IMG/VR virus record: IMGVR_UViG_3300025120_000518
Location: 1 to 24,646 of that record
Reading direction: 5' to 3' (one strand)
DNA: 24,646 nt
Source: a virus
The notes under the pieces are model-generated. The model worked only from the letters and a program-made list of their open reading frames with translations, made no database searches and was not told where the DNA came from. The first letter of the stretch is position 1. Each line of letters begins with the position of its first letter. A program made the translations under genes and the position numbers. Below, in pieces: positions 3,040 to 24,646 of the stretch.

Positions 3040-4383
3040 TTATTCTGGTATACAATTAGGAACTTCTCTACCATTCTTTATCTTTGTACCATATGCAATA
3101 TATCCTTCAGTACAAGGGTTAGGTGTGATTAGTTCTTCTAATTTACTAATTAAGATATCTGTTGTTTCCGAATGGTCTTTACATGGCATGAATAACATTT
3201 CACCATTAACCTCGTGTTGATGTGCTCCATCACAACCAATAGTCTTAGCAACCATTATTGCTTCTGCTTCTGTTTTGTATAAAGGTAAACCATCATATGA
3301 TGCTGCTTGTTCTAATCCTATTGTTTCTTGTACCTTTGCAATTGCATCTTCAATACTTTCTAATGCTTCACCAATAGAACCACTACTTACCTCACCTGGG
3401 TATGTTGATGCAGGAATAGAAGGTTGTACTTCATTCTCCTGCAACAACCCCAACTCTCTCAACTTATTTCTACTCCATCCTAATGCAGCTTTTCCTCCCC
3501 ATAACAAATAAGAGATTGTACCACACTCTGTGGATTTATTGGGGTCATAATATACTTCTGCTCGAGATAAGTAACTATGCATTCTCTTAATCGTTTCTAC
3601 TGAGATAGATTCTCCTTTAGCAAGTTGTTGTGCTCTTACCTTGCCTACTTGTGTTCCGCACTTGTTATCCTGTTTCTCATTCAGCTCGATTCCTCTCTTT
3701 GCATTATTGGAAACACTTTTAGGATAATCAGAGTACGATTCCATTTCGATTCTTTTACCTTTTTTATATCTTTTATCTTTTTTAATTACTGCACGTATCT
3801 GTGATAGTAAGTAATTTGCTTCTTCTTCTTGTATCTTATCTAATAGTATATCAGATGAAATCTTACCTGCTTTAACTAAATCATGCGTGAATAAACCTTC
3901 TATTGAGAATCCTTTTACTTCACCACTCTTTACGAACTCATTCCATACTGCATCGTTATCTATCTTCATAGAGCCCATCCAAGTACCAACTGGTAAGTTA
4001 AGACCATAAGAATTAGATTTATCTAACTTAGAAGTTTTAATCCATGATTCTACAAGGTGTACACCTTTTACTTTCTCTTCATGTTCTATCGTTGCTTTAT
4101 CTGTGTACTTACGTTTAAGATAGTTCTGTGCAAGTTTCTCTACTGTTTCTGGTGAGAAGAATACTTCATATCCATTACCTTCACCATCTATACGAAATAT
4201 CTTTTTATTAGGGATTAAGATAGGACCTACAACGATTCTTTTTTCGTTATCTATCTTTTTAAAAGATACTTTTTCTTTATCAAACCAAACGAAGTTAGAT
4301 TCTATTGCAGGTTCTCCTACTAAAGAGATTGCGAATACCTCATCTAAAAAATCATCATCTATGGTTAATTCAAATAGTTTCAT
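3040..4383 (-). CDS. XkdF-type prohead protease with extra C-terminal domains (447 aa)
   Basis: The N-terminal 170 residues match the XkdF-like (U35-related) phage serine protease: ISLVGEPAIES, RIVVGPILIPNKKIFR, then catalytic-type His101 (ATIEHEE) and Ser160 (VKGFSIEG). It would cleave scaffold and capsid proteins during head maturation. Residues 215-305 form a second module, ESYSDYPKSVSNNAKRG to LLWGGKAALGW, with paired CGT motifs (C242, C287) and RAQQLAKGE; I have seen this pattern in other phage head proteins but cannot name it. Residues 360-447 add a His/Cys-bearing segment (CDGAHQHEVNG, MPCKDH) and a CTEGYIAYGTKIKNGREVPNC tail. At 447 residues it is much longer than a simple protease. 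It is unusual in lying after the tape measure instead of beside portal or capsid. Confidence 0.8.
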   Translation of the reverse strand: MKLFELTIDDDFLDEVFAISLVGEPAIESNFVWFDKEKVSFKKIDNEKRIVVGPILIPNKKIFRIDGEGNGYEVFFSPETVEKLAQNYLKRKYTDKATIEHEEKVKGVHLVESWIKTSKLDKSNSYGLNLPVGTWMGSMKIDNDAVWNEFVKSGEVKGFSIEGLFTHDLVKAGKISSDILLDKIQEEEANYLLSQIRAVIKKDKRYKKGKRIEMESYSDYPKSVSNNAKRGIELNEKQDNKCGTQVGKVRAQQLAKGESISVETIKRMHSYLSRAEVYYDPNKSTECGTISYLLWGGKAALGWSRNKLRELGLLQENEVQPSIPASTYPGEVSSGSIGEALESIEDAIAKVQETIGLEQAASYDGLPLYKTEAEAIMVAKTIGCDGAHQHEVNGEMLFMPCKDHSETTDILISKLEELITPNPCTEGYIAYGTKIKNGREVPNCIPE

Positions 4384-4416: not shown

Positions 4417-6117
4417 TTATCCTCCACCGAAGGTTGCAGCATTATTGGTTCTTCTATCTAGTGATTGTACCGAACTAACTTCTGTTGATACAACATATGC
4501 TTGTACTGGTTTGTTAGAACTCTCTGCGATTGTTTCTGCAATCTGAGCTCCTGCATCACCACCTGCAGCACCTGCAGTTTGTATTTCTGGTGCAGCAATA
4601 CTAGGAGGTGGAGGTGCACTAGCACTACTTCCTCCTCCACTACTACCACCGCCACCACCAGGTGGTTTAGGTACTTTAGTAGATAATATCTTTTTAACAT
4701 TCATAAAACCAGCAGCAATAGTTACACCAGCAGCAATTGCTCCAAATGGTGGTGGATATGTTGCAAGTGCTAGAGTAGCACCTTGATAGGTATTGATAAC
4801 TGCTTGTGCAACAGCCAACGCTTTACCTGCAACTGTATTCTCACCAACTAAGGCTGATAACGAACCAAGTGCATCACCGATGATTGCCATCTTAGTTTGA
4901 GCCTGTGCTTCTTCTATCTGTGTTCTAGCAGTAGCAGTTTCTTTATCGAATGCTACTAACGCTGAATTGGTTGCTTTGTTTGCAACTAGTTCTTGTCTTT
5001 GTAATTCTCTTGATTTATCAAAGAACTGAAGTTCTTCTTCAAACTTCAATGCTCCAAGAGTTTGTCTTAAGTTAAAATCAGCTTCTAAGAATGCTAGTTC
5101 ATCTTGTCTTTTCTGTGCTTCTTTTTCTTTTCTTATTTCTTCTGAGTTATCTTCTACTACTGCAACATCTTCTTTGTACTTAGCATCTATTGATTTTAAA
5201 TCTTGTCTGTACTCTTCTTCTAACGCAGTAAAGTTTGTATAACCAGCAAGTTTTAAAGCAGCAAGTTCTTCATTGAATCTAGCTTCTCTTTCTACTATCT
5301 CTCTTTGTTTATCAGATAGTAAACTAAGTTCTGCTTCTTTTTGTATTGCTGCAGCTGTTTCAGTTATCTTTAATCTTTCATCAGCTTCCTTCTTAGCAGC
5401 ATCTATTCTTTTCTGTGTGTTCTCTTCTGTTGTTTTAGTTAACTCTTCTTGTCTTGCAGTTTCTTCATCTGCTGCTGTTTTAAGAACTTCTGATGAATTG
5501 ATACTTGCTTCTTCTATCTTCTCAGATGAGATACCTAAGAACTTAGCAAATCTATTAAATCCTTTACCAACTAATTCTAATAAATCAGCAAACTTCTCAA
5601 AGATTGGTAGAGCAACTGCTTCTATTAATGCAAATACAGGTCCTAGTATCTTACCAAAGGCACCTGATATTCTGTTAAGTGTTTCTTGTCCTTCTGCAGT
5701 CTTACTTAACGATTCTTTAAATGCTAAGAATAAACCCGCTAGAAGTGTTACTACTGCAATTATAGGGTTGGCAGCAAGTACTTTCAGACCACCATCTAAT
5801 CCTTTTAGTGAACCACCTACTAAACCGATGATACCTGGTTGTTCTGCAAGAGCATCAGAGAATCTACGAGATTGTATTTCTACATCCTCGAACTGACGTT
5901 CCATTGTATTAAGTTCTTTTCTTAATCTTTTAAACTCTGTCTTATCACCTTGTATAGCAGCCTTCTGTAATGCTTTTCTAGTCTTTTCAATAACTGCACC
6001 TAAATCCTCAAATCCATCTAATGAATCATCAAGAGATTTGTTTAACTTGTTAAAGTTATCTAGTCCAGTTGTTTCTACATCAACTACCGCTTTATATGTC
6101 GTAGTATTATCTGCCAT
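4417..6117 (-). CDS. Tail tape measure protein, short (566 aa)
   Basis: The layout is that of a tape measure: a charged coiled N-terminus (residues 1-90), hydrophobic stretches around 95-135 (NPIIAVVTLLAGLFLAF) and 150-190, a long Glu/Lys/Ala/Gln coiled coil (about 205-400), another hydrophobic region near 415-480 (AVINTYQGATLALATYPPPFGAIAAGV, given here in part as AVINTYQGATLALATYPPPF), then a Gly/Ser/Pro/Ala-rich tail. The tape measure sets tail length and is ejected with the DNA. By the usual 1.5 angstrom per residue this one would give a tail near 85 nm. Its ATG is one base past the stop of the 44-codon gene. A small tail-needle or internal virion protein is the alternative, but the coiled-coil/hydrophobic pattern favours tape measure. 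Confidence 0.75.
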   Translation of the reverse strand: MADNTTTYKAVVDVETTGLDNFNKLNKSLDDSLDGFEDLGAVIEKTRKALQKAAIQGDKTEFKRLRKELNTMERQFEDVEIQSRRFSDALAEQPGIIGLVGGSLKGLDGGLKVLAANPIIAVVTLLAGLFLAFKESLSKTAEGQETLNRISGAFGKILGPVFALIEAVALPIFEKFADLLELVGKGFNRFAKFLGISSEKIEEASINSSEVLKTAADEETARQEELTKTTEENTQKRIDAAKKEADERLKITETAAAIQKEAELSLLSDKQREIVEREARFNEELAALKLAGYTNFTALEEEYRQDLKSIDAKYKEDVAVVEDNSEEIRKEKEAQKRQDELAFLEADFNLRQTLGALKFEEELQFFDKSRELQRQELVANKATNSALVAFDKETATARTQIEEAQAQTKMAIIGDALGSLSALVGENTVAGKALAVAQAVINTYQGATLALATYPPPFGAIAAGVTIAAGFMNVKKILSTKVPKPPGGGGGSSGGGSSASAPPPPSIAAPEIQTAGAAGGDAGAQIAETIAESSNKPVQAYVVSTEVSSVQSLDRRTNNAATFGGG

Positions 6118-6825: not shown

Positions 6826-8904
6826 TTAACTTGTTGGACCACCTCCTCCACTACATATACCTATTGACAATACTATTGCACTAGACATATTCATTGTCAT
6901 TACTGTACCATTATCACAGATTGCTAAGAATGGAGCCATGATGAATGGTACTGTCATATTCGCATCCATAAATATTCTATCTCCAACAGTTGGTAAAGTA
7001 CCTGTACCATTGTGATATAATGTGAAACATGAAAGACCACCACAAGCTTGACTTGCAGTACCACCTGGATAAGTGTTATATGCAGTACCTTGTGTAAGTG
7101 CACCTGTACCAATAACACCACTACCTCCAACATATCTTAATGGAGATGCTGACATTGTAGTTTGTACTTTTAGTTCTCCTTGTGAAAAGAAGTTCTGTGT
7201 ATCTGTGTAATATGTTTTACCATATTCTCTGTTATTTGTCTTAGTAAAGTTTTGTGATAAGAAATCTATATCTGGTGTATCACCGAACTCTAAGTTCTTA
7301 ACACCTAAGTTATTTGCAGGTGTTACTTTTATTTTTTTATTTAAATCAACAAACGAATCTATATCTACTACTCTACCTTCTTTATACCAATCATTAAATT
7401 GTTTGATAATAAAGTGTCTTGGTTTTGTTTTACTTGGATAGATTTGTAAGTTGTATTTCTTTTGTAATCCTTGTAAGAACTCTAATGATGTAATACCTTT
7501 AGTTGCAAAGGGCATATTAGGAGGTATCTGCATGATACGATAATCTGCAATCTCAGTCATCTTAGTTACTTCTAAATAAGATTCTGCATTACCACCTGGT
7601 CCTATGATTACATCAGCAGATGTGTTAGCTGTTTGGAATCCATCAATAAAGATTTGTGGGTCATACTGTACACCTCTTGCTAGGGTAACTTGTATTTTTT
7701 GTTCTAAATCAAACTCTTCTTCACCTGTACCTGCTTTACCTATTAACCTACGATACATCTGTTCATTCATAAAAGCTAAGGGAACTATTGGTCCATTGAA
7801 AGAACCTGATTGAGGGTCCTCTTTAAAGAACAAAGATAAGTTAGGAATACTAACAGTAGAATCAGAACCAGTAACAAGATATTTTAAAGAGACTTCCATT
7901 TCGACTGGGAATCCAAATGATGTACCTGTTGTACCAAAGTTTCTTGTCATTGTATATTTAGCACCATCCATTTTAAACGATGGGTCAAATATTGTATTTT
8001 CAAAATCTAATGATTCAGATACACCTGATGTTGTAAGTGTAAGTGGTACTGATGAACCACTAATAGGTGCTATCTTTACTAGACCTTCTATGTTTAAATC
8101 TATACCACTATAATTGGCTCTCTTATTACCATTATCACAAAGTAAGTATTGGTCATCAAAGACATCAGAATCAAAGAAATCAGATTCAAAGGTATATTGT
8201 GATTGTGAGAAGATTGCTTCAACAACTCGTTTAGTACGAATCATTGGTTTCATATCTACTACGTTTATCTGTCCACCAGGGTCATCACCTGTGTTATCAA
8301 TACCAAAATCATTTCTAGTTGTAGCAGATTGGAATGTATATCCTTGTCCATAATCTACAATAGGATATATAATATCACCAACTTCAAACGAACCACTATT
8401 AGTAACAATACCTGCATCAGCAGCAGAACCACTCCATGTTTCTAATATGACTTCCATACTAGCTGTGTGGTTGTACTTATCTAGTGTATCTAAGTTAGTT
8501 AAATTGATTTGTGCTAAATCTCTACTAAAAGAAGATAATAATCCAAATATGGATACTGTATATGATTCTATGAACTTGTTTTCTTTTACAATTACATTCT
8601 CTAACTGCATATATCCTTGTGCAACATAGAAACCATCGAAATCAAATTGTGCTATTACCTTCTCATTTGTTTTAAACAAGTAAGGTTCATCAACAGATAT
8701 ATCATAGACGTGTTGAAAGAAATCATTATTCTTCTTAGTACCTGGTACTTGTATCTGACGTGTAAAATCACTCGGTAGTGCACCGATATCAAATAAACCT
8801 GTTACGTTGTTGGATAGTTTGATTGTTTCATCATTGAATAAATCTAACGTAGTCCCTCTTGCAATAAGTTTGAATACTTTGTTTCTTCCACTTGCTACTG
8901 CCAT
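6826..8904 (-). CDS. Tail hub/baseplate structural protein with an appended C-terminal module (692 aa)
   Basis: The N-terminus (VTGLFDIGALPSDFTRQIQVPGTKKNNDFF, about residues 34-63) matches a recurrent Bacteroidota phage tail protein opening 'SDFT..i.vPgT..N...F'. The middle is beta-rich, with ITSLEFLQGLQKKYNLQIYP around 465-485, again typical. Residues from about 592 to the end are different: Thr/Gly/Cys-rich, with paired Cys and TLPTVGDRIFMDANMTVPF, resembling a small module I associate with C-termini of Bacteroidota surface proteins. The gene is followed by a 178-residue gene that looks like its missing C-terminal half. It probably forms the tail hub or baseplate; no enzymatic motif is visible. 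Confidence 0.7.
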   Translation of the reverse strand: MAVASGRNKVFKLIARGTTLDLFNDETIKLSNNVTGLFDIGALPSDFTRQIQVPGTKKNNDFFQHVYDISVDEPYLFKTNEKVIAQFDFDGFYVAQGYMQLENVIVKENKFIESYTVSIFGLLSSFSRDLAQINLTNLDTLDKYNHTASMEVILETWSGSAADAGIVTNSGSFEVGDIIYPIVDYGQGYTFQSATTRNDFGIDNTGDDPGGQINVVDMKPMIRTKRVVEAIFSQSQYTFESDFFDSDVFDDQYLLCDNGNKRANYSGIDLNIEGLVKIAPISGSSVPLTLTTSGVSESLDFENTIFDPSFKMDGAKYTMTRNFGTTGTSFGFPVEMEVSLKYLVTGSDSTVSIPNLSLFFKEDPQSGSFNGPIVPLAFMNEQMYRRLIGKAGTGEEEFDLEQKIQVTLARGVQYDPQIFIDGFQTANTSADVIIGPGGNAESYLEVTKMTEIADYRIMQIPPNMPFATKGITSLEFLQGLQKKYNLQIYPSKTKPRHFIIKQFNDWYKEGRVVDIDSFVDLNKKIKVTPANNLGVKNLEFGDTPDIDFLSQNFTKTNNREYGKTYYTDTQNFFSQGELKVQTTMSASPLRYVGGSGVIGTGALTQGTAYNTYPGGTASQACGGLSCFTLYHNGTGTLPTVGDRIFMDANMTVPFIMAPFLAICDNGTVMTMNMSSAIVLSIGICSGGGGPTS

Positions 8905-13026: not shown

Positions 13027-13938
13027 TTATGTATATTGCCACTTTCTAAGTGCATCATCTATTTTGTTATTATCCCAACGTTCAGGTGTTGTACCCCAAA
13101 CTTTAGGTGTTGTCCATAATTCACATAATTCACAAGTTCCAAAATCCTCGTAAGGTATTGCTAGAACTGGTAAGTTATAGAAATCATAGTCATCTCTATT
13201 GTTTACCTCTGACAGTATTTCGAAACATCTAATGTTATCATAACTTGTAAGATAACTTTCTGGTTTTGAATCTGGAACATATTGTGTTGCAAACACTTGT
13301 CCTATCGAGCCAGTAACTGCTGTATCTAATACTGCATTAAATAATTCATTCGTTTCACAATCTTTTACTTTGAAATAACTACCATCAGGTATTATCAAAA
13401 AAAAAAGACAACGATTTTTATCATTGTGAACGGTTAAAGTGAATTCTGCAGACCATCCACAGAGTCCATTATTGAACCGGTCGGCGAAGGGGATACAATT
13501 AATTGCCGAATTAATCTCCATCCCATAGTTACTCTTCTGAGTAAATGCGGTTAAATCATTTAACACACTCAGAGTATTCGCGTGTATATCAACTATATCA
13601 TCTGTACCATCAAAGGGTACTAGTTGTTTATTTGTTTTCTTATTCTTAGTAATATCATCTCGCATTGTCTTTGATTTATCTGCAACTATCAATTGTACTT
13701 GATACTCTGTTACAGTTGGACCAAAGTTTGCATTACTGATTAATACATTACCAATAGGGTATTGTGGAAACTCAGTACTATCGAAGTTGTATATATCACC
13801 TTGTGTTACTTTAGCAATAGAAGGATGATTCTTCATTATTGTTTTAAAGTAATTCAATGTATTGTAATATAGTGAAAAGTTCTCTGCTGAGTTCTTTACT
13901 ACTTGACTTCTACTTGGTGTATAACTTGGTGTGCTCAT
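13027..13938 (-). CDS. Tail-terminator-like protein with a C-terminal extension (303 aa)
   Basis: Residues 1-178 match the Bacteroidota phage protein pattern 'LNYFKTIM..HPSI..VT.GDI......p.yP...i.......' and later 'PFADRFNN.L.GWSAEFTLTV.ND.NRC', usually about 160-180 residues and interpreted as tail terminator/completion. At exactly that point (codons 178-181) the DNA has ten consecutive T. The frame continues for a further 122 residues (PDGSYFKVKDCETNELF... CELCELWTTPKVWGTTPERWD), with a Cys/Trp-rich end. Slippage by one base in either direction would hit a stop within about four codons. The C-terminal part is unrecognised. It lies seven bases after the connector gene. Confidence 0.65.
   Translation of the reverse strand: MSTPSYTPSRSQVVKNSAENFSLYYNTLNYFKTIMKNHPSIAKVTQGDIYNFDSTEFPQYPIGNVLISNANFGPTVTEYQVQLIVADKSKTMRDDITKNKKTNKQLVPFDGTDDIVDIHANTLSVLNDLTAFTQKSNYGMEINSAINCIPFADRFNNGLCGWSAEFTLTVHNDKNRCLFFLIIPDGSYFKVKDCETNELFNAVLDTAVTGSIGQVFATQYVPDSKPESYLTSYDNIRCFEILSEVNNRDDYDFYNLPVLAIPYEDFGTCELCELWTTPKVWGTTPERWDNNKIDDALRKWQYT
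13397..13406 (-). promoter_or_regulatory. T10 slippery run at a domain boundary
   Basis: Ten T on the coding strand span codons 178-181 (CTT TTT TTT TTG). Both shifted frames stop quickly: TGA directly at the end of the run in the -1 frame, and GAT AAT ACC TGA in the +1 frame. Polymerase or ribosome slippage would therefore give a protein of about 180 residues, close to the usual length of this family, besides the 303-residue form. Confidence 0.4.
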
Positions 13939-22461: not shown

Positions 22462-22749
22462 CTATTTATACTTCTTCATCATACTACGATGAATTGCTCT
22501 TTCCATTGTGTTCTTATCTGTCATATAGGTTAAAAACAACAAACATTCTTCTAACGGTCTTTGTAAGACGTTGGGAAAATTGAGTATGTTTTCTTGTGCA
22601 AGGATTGCCACTGATTGATAACCTTTCCACTTTCTTGAAAAATTCGCTGAATATACGGATGTTGGGTCTCCCCCTTCAATACTTCCTCCTTCGAAGAGCT
22701 CAGGATATCTTTCAACAAGTCCAAGTAGATAGTCTTGAAGAAAAAAAAA
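22462..22749 (-). CDS. -1 frame extension of the chaperone-like gene (frameshift product, C-terminal 95 codons)
   Basis: This frame joins the gene at 22551-23246 by a -1 shift on the T9 run and ends at 22462. It reads LQDYLLGLVERYPELFEGGS, then VYSANFSRKWKGYQSVAILA and RPLEECLLFLTYMTDKN, ending AIHRSMMKKYK. It resembles a conserved C-terminal domain of Bacteroidota phage proteins ('FsrKWgwY.siy.La......f..v..l.v.eCL.fL.y..dK.e.e'), so it is probably the truly conserved continuation. A separate start within this frame (22785) would lie inside the upstream gene with no ribosome site. The shifted product would have about 261 residues. Confidence 0.65.
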   Translation of the reverse strand, partial: FFFLQDYLLGLVERYPELFEGGSIEGGDPTSVYSANFSRKWKGYQSVAILAQENILNFPNVLQRPLEECLLFLTYMTDKNTMERAIHRSMMKKYK

Positions 22750-23246
22750 CACCCAAAGTGTACATCCATTGTTACATTCAACCATCTATCTTCATCCCAA
22801 GGTTCTACTCCTTGGTATCCTTTAATCTCATACAGAGCTCCTTGTTTCTTTATTACTTCTCTATATAGTATTGCCATGATAGTAGACCAGTTCTTATCTA
22901 TACTAAGAGTTTCAAACTTACTGATATCTAAGTACGCACCATATGCAATGTTTGCTAAGTTAGGTTCGAATCCATATTCTTTATCTTCTACTTTGACAAC
23001 CTTTTGTAAATCATACTCTTGATTGTTTAAGAGTACGTTTAAATCGTTTTTAATACTGTCTAAGGTATTCTTATCTAATTTATTAGTTAGTTCAGGAGTT
23101 AACTTACAAAGGTTAAATAAAAGGAAAGCATCTTGTGCTTCTTTATCATCTTCGTAATTCTTTAAATCATCTTGTATCTTAAGATATTGTTTTAAGGTTA
23201 CTGCACTAAAGTCTTTAGGTACTGTTATCTCTATTTCTTTTTTCAT
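22551..23246 (-). CDS. Tail-assembly-chaperone-like protein, unshifted form (231 aa)
   Basis: The 231-residue frame starts MKKEIEITVPKDFSAVTLKQYLKIQD and continues with DAFLLFNLCKLTPELTNKL, VEDKEYGFEPNLANIAYGAYLDISKF and MAILYREVIKKQGALYEIKGYQG. Residue 167 onward is encoded by a T9 run (FFFF), after which the unshifted frame continues for about 61 residues to the stop at 22551. A -1 shift gives a 261-residue form with a conserved-looking C-terminus. Two-form proteins of this kind with a slippery site are characteristic of tail assembly chaperones (lambda G/GT), though those normally lie just upstream of the tape measure. Here the gene is close to the terminase, so the assignment is by analogy. 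Confidence 0.65.
   Translation of the reverse strand: MKKEIEITVPKDFSAVTLKQYLKIQDDLKNYEDDKEAQDAFLLFNLCKLTPELTNKLDKNTLDSIKNDLNVLLNNQEYDLQKVVKVEDKEYGFEPNLANIAYGAYLDISKFETLSIDKNWSTIMAILYREVIKKQGALYEIKGYQGVEPWDEDRWLNVTMDVHFGCFFFFKTIYLDLLKDILSSSKEEVLKGETQHPYIQRIFQESGKVINQWQSLHKKTYSIFPTSYKDR
22741..22749 (-). promoter_or_regulatory. T9 slippery site for -1 frameshifting
   Basis: In the upstream reading frame the codons are GGG TGT TTT TTT TTC TTC AAG, which contain the canonical X XXY YYZ heptamers T TTT TTT and T TTT TTC. A -1 shift places the ribosome in the frame that continues to 22462. Transcriptional slippage, or a homopolymer error in the assembly, would give the same result. Confidence 0.6.
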
Positions 23247-23249
23247 ATA

Positions 23250-23615
23250 CTATTTCTTTTGTATTGGATTCTTACCAAGTGTTCCTCTTACTTCATGAAA
23301 CTTAACTGATGCATCTAAATACGGCATTCTCTTCTTATCTGTTACATCTTCGTGTGGTACATCTTCTACTTCTGATTCCAACTTAAGATTGTTAATCTCT
23401 ATGTTCTTATGACCTACCATTGATTTTAACTTTAAGATATCTGCACGTAATAACTTCTCTCTTGTTTGTCCTAGTTTTAACTCTGCGTTTAAATCTTGTA
23501 CCAACTGTTTAAGATGATGAGCATACTCACTAACCTTTTCAAGATGGTCATATATCTCATATCTGTTCTTATCTTTGTATTCATCTGGTATATTGATTTC
23601 TATTATCTTTGCCAT
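23250..23615 (-). CDS. Coiled-coil hypothetical protein (121 aa)
   Basis: The 121-residue protein has a short N-terminal strand (KIIEINIPDEY), then a long helical coiled-coil region at about residues 20-85 (YEIYDHLEKVSEYAHHLKQL, ELKLGQTREKLLRADILKLK), and a polar C-terminal tail ending TLGKNPIQKK. No family is recognised. It follows the 61-codon gene by one base and precedes the chaperone-like gene by three. Such a coiled coil could be an assembly factor; a small-terminase role is possible from its length and location near the large terminase, but there is no visible DNA-binding motif. Confidence 0.6.
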   Translation of the reverse strand: MAKIIEINIPDEYKDKNRYEIYDHLEKVSEYAHHLKQLVQDLNAELKLGQTREKLLRADILKLKSMVGHKNIEINNLKLESEVEDVPHEDVTDKKRMPYLDASVKFHEVRGTLGKNPIQKK

Positions 23616-23807: not shown

Positions 23808-24646
23808 TTATTTAAATGTTAATGTGTATTTACCTTTGTTCTCTGCTTTGATAGATAACCTTGACATTGCAACGTATCTTAAACTATCTAACAAGTGGTC
23901 TAATCCTCCTTGTGGTTTATCTAGTTGTACGCCGTACTTATCTGTCATCCATTCATATGCATATAGTTCGTTGATTAGATTCTGTGATTTACGTTCTACA
24001 CATAAACCATAGTTCTGTACTACACCGATTCCAAAGTTAATTGAGTTTGGTCCTTTCTTGACTGGTTTAATATTAAAACCACCTCTATATATTTCTTCGA
24101 TTAATCGTGGGTCTGCACTATCGCCCCATATCTCTGTTTTACCGATGTTTAATTTACCTAGCCTGTTAATGATATCTTTACTTACTAAACCTTTCTCATA
24201 TAAGAGTTCTCGTAGGTACAACATATCTCCTTGTCTATGTACTGCAATCAAAGCAGTTGGGTCATTAGAAAATCCAAAGTCCATGCCAAGAGCTACTAAC
24301 TCACATACTGGTATCTCATCTACTATTTGGAATGAGTAGATTGCTTTATCGTTAGGTGCGTATTCTCCTTTACCATAGATTGTCCAATACTTAGGATTCT
24401 TATCTTGTAAATCCTCTATTGCTTTTACCATCTCTTTAGGTAGATAAGGATTATCTTTGTAAGTAGTTGTAAACTTCTCTACATCTTCTTGTGTTCTTAA
24501 CCAATGATAAGGTGATATAGTTGGATTGAATGCTAAGATGATATTGCCAGTTGTACGAATAGATAATTGAAAGTATGCTTCTTCGTGTATCTCTGATGCC
24601 TCGTCTATAAACAAGATATCTGATTTAACACCTCTTAACTTATCAG
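23808..24646 (-). CDS. terL: Terminase large subunit, C-terminal 278 residues (5' end outside window)
   Basis: The frame is open to the right edge, so the ATPase N-terminus with Walker A is missing. Visible parts are the Walker B strand LFIDEA with catalytic Glu, the coupling motif TTGNIILAFNP, and the RNase-H-like nuclease domain: VALGMDFGFSNDPTALI (first Asp), WGDSADPRLIEEI (second Asp) and GGLDHLLDSLRYVAMS (third Asp). The protein packages DNA into the prohead by ATP hydrolysis and cuts concatemers. It acts with the portal encoded about 8 kb downstream. A TTG in this frame at Walker B is an ordinary Leu codon, not a start. All nuclease acidic residues are present, so the gene looks intact as far as visible. 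Confidence 0.92.
   Translation of the reverse strand, partial: DKLRGVKSDILFIDEASEIHEEAYFQLSIRTTGNIILAFNPTISPYHWLRTQEDVEKFTTTYKDNPYLPKEMVKAIEDLQDKNPKYWTIYGKGEYAPNDKAIYSFQIVDEIPVCELVALGMDFGFSNDPTALIAVHRQGDMLYLRELLYEKGLVSKDIINRLGKLNIGKTEIWGDSADPRLIEEIYRGGFNIKPVKKGPNSINFGIGVVQNYGLCVERKSQNLINELYAYEWMTDKYGVQLDKPQGGLDHLLDSLRYVAMSRLSIKAENKGKYTLTFK

What the first reader, a model, noticed from the sequence alone, without database searches (positions are those of the whole stretch)
22462..23246. Programmed -1 frameshift (or polymerase slippage) on T9 in a gene near the terminase
A T9 run contains two canonical -1 heptamers in the correct phase, and the -1 frame stays open for 93-95 codons with a sequence that looks more conserved than the unshifted end. 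A two-form product of 231 and about 261 residues resembles lambda G/GT chaperones, but the gene lies by the terminase, not the tape measure. A homopolymer error would also produce this picture.
Basis: partly seen in the sequence, partly recalled or inferred. Interest (0 to 1): 0.7.

Follow-up and report, generated by a model that had tools for sequence, protein, structure and literature searches.

The report
Conserved T9 recoding in phage chaperone gene
A run of nine Ts lets one gene of a marine Bacteroidetes-type virus yield two proteins, both kept by selection across hundreds of relatives; the gene is probably a tail-assembly chaperone, and the run seems to work by making the RNA polymerase (less likely the ribosome) slip.

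Summary
In all 153 loci of the first sets, and 78 of 79 scorable loci of a more distant branch, the C-terminal domain lies in the -1 frame of the N-terminal domain. The isolated Nonlabens phages P12024S and P12024L (~26% identity) are among them. All 184 distinct junctions carry exactly T9 or T10, in all three codon phases. The 0-frame extension is selected too: synonymous change in the overlap falls to about 0.6 of expectation, and the 0 frame stays open 2-3 times longer than in synonymous shuffles. So two proteins are expected, 231 and 261 aa. Remote matches to the P2 gpE family, and a place in the tail module of the distant branch, point to a tail assembly chaperone that works like gpE/E' or gpG/GT. 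A run length held at 9-10 in every phase, without downstream RNA structure or Shine-Dalgarno, favours RNA-polymerase slippage over a ribosomal heptamer; this step is inferred. A second conserved T10 (13397-13406), with stops in both other frames, would cut a 303-aa protein where distant relatives end it naturally. New variant of a known kind.

The parts
22551..23246 (-). 0-frame ORF, 231 aa: N-domain (about residues 1-168) plus the 0-frame tail; probable tail assembly chaperone, short form
22741..22749 (-). T9 slippage run (A9 on + strand), holding T_TTT_TTT and T_TTT_TTC in phase
   Evidence: T9 or T10 in 184/184 distinct junctions
22462..22749 (-). -1 frame C-domain (95 codons from the run plus stop); fused to the N-domain gives the 261-aa long form
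22551..22740 (-). dual-coded overlap: 0-frame tail and -1 frame C-domain both under selection
23250..23615 (-). 121-aa ORF just upstream of the chaperone-like gene, unknown function
23808..24614 (-). terminase large subunit (runs off the window end)
13397..13406 (-). second conserved run, T10 (A10 on + strand), inside the 303-aa gene; stops follow at once in both other frames
13027..13938 (-). 303-aa gene; its first ~177 residues are a stand-alone protein in the distant branch, ending at the cysteine that precedes the T10
4417..6117 (-). tape measure protein, the expected client of the chaperone

Best explanation
This is a tail-assembly-chaperone-like gene of a tailed phage of Bacteroidetes (probably Flavobacteriia) whose T9 run is a programmed slippage site. 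Most likely the RNA polymerase slips on the nine Ts, so that part of the mRNA carries one extra U (or lacks two). Faithful mRNA gives a 231-aa protein; slipped mRNA gives a 261-aa protein with the same N-domain and a different, helical C-domain. By analogy with gpG/gpGT and gpE/gpE', the short form would bind the tape measure protein and the rarer long form would recruit the tail tube protein. Shown here: the conserved frame relation, the conserved run, and selection on both C-termini. Inferred: that the polymerase rather than the ribosome slips, the ratio of products, and the chaperone role.
For: Frame relation in 153/153 and 78/79 loci, also in isolated Nonlabens phages. T9/T10 in 184/184 junctions, in three codon phases, with at least 12 phase changes on the tree. 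When the 5' codon supplies fewer than 9 Ts the next codon starts with T in 108/108 cases, against 7/71 when the 5' codon is TTT. Dual-coding selection. No downstream RNA structure, almost no SD-like motif. gpE-family matches at this gene only: PF10109 in 9 of 21 records (best E 4.7e-6), phrog_166 in 12 of 21 (best E 6.6e-9); P2 gpE itself matches phrog_166. Tail-module neighbours in the distant branch. A second conserved T10 with stops in both other frames. Published: bacterial RNA polymerase slips efficiently at runs of 9 A or T, with a 9-10-bp hybrid (PMC5009743).
Against: A T9 run always contains a T_TTT_TTT heptamer, so a ribosomal shift cannot be excluded. Amino-acid preference around the run explains part of its length, and the phylogenetically independent pair test is underpowered (p 0.125). 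PF10109 scores stay under the curated cut-off and profile-profile scores are weak. The window's gene is not next to the tape measure. Some distant unnamed BFVD entries match both N and C models, so single-frame long forms may exist.
Confidence: 0.6

Rival explanations
1. The same two products are made by -1 ribosomal frameshifting on T_TTT_TTT or T_TTT_TTC, as in P2 gene E (T_TTT_TTG) and lambda G/GT; the long T-run only raises the efficiency.
For: An in-phase heptamer is present in every junction (follows). The related P2 gene E is annotated with a translational -1 shift, and its sequence there is T6-G. L/V/I or F before FF, and Y/F after it, account for part of the run.
Against: Runs of 7 or 8, which would suffice in two of the three phases, never occur. 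No downstream structure, no SD. The second T10 site has stops in both other frames, which a pure -1 ribosomal shift would not need.
Confidence: 0.33
2. Recoding is real but the protein is not a tail assembly chaperone; it serves packaging or head assembly together with the terminase.
For: The terminase gene lies upstream on the same strand in 209 of 209 loci where it is found. Pfam matches are sub-threshold. No significant solved relative by fold.
Against: Repeated gpE-family matches at this gene only. In the distant branch the next genes are tail-completion-like, and a tape-measure-like ORF follows. A two-product -1 architecture is typical of these chaperones (PMC5009743).
Confidence: 0.15
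3. Sequencing or assembly error in the homopolymer; the gene is really one frame.
For: Homopolymers are error-prone; single-indel variants exist at the second site (L299 T11, L300 T9).
Against: The same frame relation and T9/T10 in 184 distinct junctions from many independent metagenomes and in isolated phages. Selection on both frames.
Confidence: 0.01

Closest known systems
P2 gpE / gpE+E' tail assembly chaperone (Phage_TAC_7, PF10109; phrog_103 and phrog_166)
   Same: Two products sharing an N-part, the longer by a -1 shift on a T-rich run; remote sequence similarity over about residues 1-75.
   Different: P2 uses T6-G, here T9/T10. The N-domain is about 168 aa against 91 aa for the whole of P2 gpE; the 0-frame tail is ~50-60 aa and dual-coded; gene order differs. 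Scores are under the curated cut-off.
Lambda gpG / gpGT
   Same: Short and long chaperone forms from one gene by a -1 event; both needed for tail assembly (PMC5009743).
   Different: Lambda's shift is ribosomal and its gene lies next to the tape measure; no sequence match was found here.
Thermus thermophilus dnaX and Shigella T3SS genes (transcriptional slippage on runs of ~9 A/T)
   Same: Run of 9-10 A/T as the only signal; nearby stops in an unused frame; two products (PMC5009743).
   Different: These are cellular or plasmid genes. Slippage itself has not been measured in the phage.
Nonlabens phages P12024S_38/_39 and the P12024L counterparts
   Same: Same gene, same T9, C-domain in the -1 frame.
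   Different: About 26% identity. Annotated as two hypothetical proteins. The gene follows the terminase directly and is followed by tail-completion-like genes.

Membership tests
Phage tail assembly chaperone (gpE/E', gpG/GT type) | Two products sharing an N-terminus, the longer by a frame change near the end of the first ORF | tested here: met
   Frame relation and selection on both products; the proteins themselves were not observed
Phage tail assembly chaperone (gpE/E', gpG/GT type) | Sequence homology to a chaperone family over a curated threshold | tested here: inconclusive
   PF10109 best 21.9 bits against a cut-off of 25; phrog_166 E 6.6e-9; hhalign E 0.0075 with low probability
Phage tail assembly chaperone (gpE/E', gpG/GT type) | Gene between tail tube and tape measure genes (usual, not strictly defining) | tested here: inconclusive
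   Not so in the window (terminase side). In the distant branch it lies in a tail module; in L209 a tape-measure-like ORF is four genes on
Phage tail assembly chaperone (gpE/E', gpG/GT type) | Binds the tape measure protein; absent from the mature virion | not testable with these tools
   needs a laboratory test
Programmed transcriptional slippage | Run of about 9 or more A or T at the junction, length conserved | tested here: met
   T9 or T10 in 184/184 distinct junctions
Programmed transcriptional slippage | Requirement independent of the codon phase of the run | tested here: met
   Three phases, at least 12 changes on the tree, length kept; amino-acid preference explains part of it
Programmed transcriptional slippage | mRNA population with inserted or deleted bases | not testable with these tools
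   no transcript data
-1 programmed ribosomal frameshift | X_XXY_YYZ heptamer in phase | tested here: met
   T_TTT_TTT in phase in the window and necessarily in any T9 run
-1 programmed ribosomal frameshift | Downstream stem-loop/pseudoknot or upstream Shine-Dalgarno stimulator (usual, not obligatory) | tested here: not met
   Mean z 0.09 and 0.24 at 5 and 15 nt downstream; 2 of 68 with an SD-like motif; window z -0.48; pseudoknots not modelled

The most novel reading that the evidence does not exclude
A large lineage of Bacteroidetes phages makes the two forms of its tail chaperone by RNA-polymerase slippage on T9/T10 instead of a ribosomal shift, with a dual-coded 0-frame tail. Part of the lineage uses the same device a second time (T10) to make short and long forms of a tail-module protein, so that product ratios in virion assembly are set at transcription.
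Probability: 0.5. Interest if true: 0.75.

Novelty: new variant of a known kind. Interest (0 to 1): 0.62.

Why it matters
Tail chaperone frameshifting is a textbook case of ribosomal recoding kept across many long-tailed phages. Here a widespread aquatic phage group appears to reach the same two-product outcome with a polymerase slippage run, and to code two selected proteins in one ~150-190-base overlap. That makes 'same outcome, different machine' directly testable by sequencing mRNA. It also identifies hundreds of genes that annotation now splits or truncates, as in the Nonlabens records, and a second slippage site of the same type.

Tried and rejected
The PDB comparison gave only weak matches for the N model (best Z 3.2) and none for the C model. 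BFVD gave mostly unnamed phage proteins plus Nonlabens, and one weak 'Tail assembly chaperone protein' (E 0.11). A few unnamed BFVD entries (A0A516L611, A0A6J5N0W0, A0A6J5SVK3, A0A6J7XA66, A0A6J5N3F3) match both N and C models, so distant single-frame long forms may exist; their DNA was not at hand. The prophage search in bacterial genomes found one Bacteroidetes MAG contig only. Pfam and solved-structure sequence searches with the window protein or N profile gave nothing useful; Rfam gave no hit. I first thought that run length alone excluded the ribosome; checking the codons showed that amino-acid preference explains part of it, so that claim was lowered. Searches of the held library found no report of transcriptional slippage in a tail chaperone; most subscription papers are not held.

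Full report
What is there. On the minus strand, an ORF from 23246 to 22551 (231 aa) contains TGT TTT TTT TTC. The T9 run is A9 at 22741-22749 on the + strand, and two -1 heptamers are in phase. The -1 frame stays open to the stop at 22462, which would give a 261-aa protein. The record is an IMG/VR virus contig of 24.6 kb with terminase, portal, tape measure and other structural genes on the same strand.

Is it real. Two scans of IMG/VR with the N-part and the C-part returned 7 and 66 loci (a few contigs appear twice). In every one the C-part is in the -1 frame relative to the N-part, and a long T-run lies at the joint. A scan with a fused family alignment added more (589 candidates confirmed before the cut to 80), and one locus came from a Bacteroidetes MAG. 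Together with the Nonlabens phage, 153 of 153 loci are in the -1 frame. A more distant query added 79 scorable loci, 78 in the -1 frame; the exception, L212, has a broken N-part. Nonlabens phages P12024S and P12024L, which are isolates, show the same frame relation with T9 in P12024S, annotated there as separate hypothetical proteins. In 184 distinct junctions the run is T9 (144) or T10 (40), never other. No homopolymer error can do this.

Both products are kept. The 0 frame after the run stays open for 49.7 codons on average against 17.9 in synonymous shuffles of the -1 frame, and for 55.7 against 24.8 in the distant branch. The third frame closes after 5.6 and 1.9 codons. Synonymous change in the -1-frame codons drops to 0.63 of expectation over the first 40 codons after the run and returns to about 1.0-1.13 where the 0-frame ORF ends. 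In the distant branch the overlap gives 0.53-0.75 against 1.13-1.20 in the N-domain, and many 0-frame tails end in an LKISLN-like motif. So the short form is a selected protein with its own tail, and the region is dual-coded. RNA-level constraint could add to this, but no structure was seen.

What the protein is. The N-domain (AlphaFold mean pLDDT 88.9) belongs with phrog_32199, of unknown function. In a scan of 21 records, PF10109 (Phage_TAC_7, P2 gpE/Mu gp41) matched in nine, once each, best E 4.7e-6, below the curated cut-off; comparison of coordinates with the loci places each match in this gene's N-part. phrog_166 matched in 12 records, best E 6.6e-9, and P2 gpE itself matches phrog_166 at 4e-7 over the same profile range. 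Scanned singly, 10 of 36 members match PF10109 and 12 of 36 match phrog_166, while most other families appear once. Profile-profile comparison is weak. The C-domain is helical, without a solved relative found.

Location. The terminase lies upstream on the same strand in all 209 loci where it is found. In the distant branch the gene after this one is a homolog of the N-terminal part of the window's 303-aa protein. In L209 the following gene shares phrog_29822 with a Nonlabens protein that also matches phrog_5, tail completion/Neck1, and a tape-measure-like coiled-coil ORF lies four genes on (the tape-measure reading of that ORF is mine). So the gene belongs to a tail module, which in the window's lineage is separated from the tape measure by other structural genes.

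Mechanism. A T-run of nine always contains a T_TTT_TTT heptamer, so the heptamer's presence proves nothing. Three observations favour polymerase slippage. First, the length stays at 9-10 in all three codon phases, with at least 12 phase changes on the family tree; when the 5' codon gives fewer Ts the next codon supplies them (108/108, against 7/71 when the 5' codon is TTT). The phylogenetically independent test has too few pairs (p 0.125), and amino-acid preference explains part of it. Second, there is no downstream structure and almost no Shine-Dalgarno-like motif. Third, there is the sister site below. The literature puts efficient slippage of bacterial RNA polymerase at runs of 9 A or T, with a 9-10-bp hybrid (PMC5009743). 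I give polymerase slippage about 0.6 and the ribosome about 0.33.

A second site. The only other run of 9 or more in the window is A10 at 13397-13406, a T10 in the 303-aa gene 13027-13938. In 62 of 64 distinct homologs it is exactly T10, in one codon phase. In all 62 the long frame continues, the +1 frame stops at once using the last T of the run, and the -1 frame stops within 1-5 codons. Two single-indel variants exist (T11 in L299, T9 in L300). In the distant branch the homologous protein ends by itself at the cysteine that directly precedes this run (67 of 68 such loci; Nonlabens too). Slippage here would therefore give the stand-alone form, and faithful mRNA a form with about 125 more residues.

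Limits. There are no transcript or protein data. The chaperone assignment rests on remote similarity, architecture and gene neighbours. The two structural models are of parts, not of the fused protein. Loci are related to each other, so counts are not independent events.

Noticed in passing
window 13397-13406 (-), in ORF 13027-13938: Second conserved T10 run (62 of 64 distinct homologs) with stops in both other frames right after it; slippage would cut the 303-aa protein to about 180 aa, the length at which the homolog in distant relatives ends naturally.
   Followed up: yes
L166-L245, about 520 nt upstream of the junction (e.g. L171, L195): A hairpin followed by T9, typical of an intrinsic terminator, lies just upstream of the chaperone-like gene in part of the distant branch, so the gene seems to begin a new transcription unit there.
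   Followed up: partly
L075 (JQ823122) 8001-8695: Nonlabens phage genes P12024S_38 and P12024S_39 are one recoded gene; P12024S_39 is only the end of the -1 frame C-domain.
   Followed up: yes
L212: The N-part of the chaperone-like gene is interrupted although the T9 is intact; an assembly indel or a real mutation.
   Followed up: no
L190, L242: In these two distant relatives the 0 frame stays open about as long as the -1 frame (85 and 84 codons), so the short and long forms would be almost equal in length.
   Followed up: no
window 3040-4383 (-): 447-aa ORF whose N-part matches head maturation protease families, lying after the tape measure gene: an unusual gene order.
   Followed up: no
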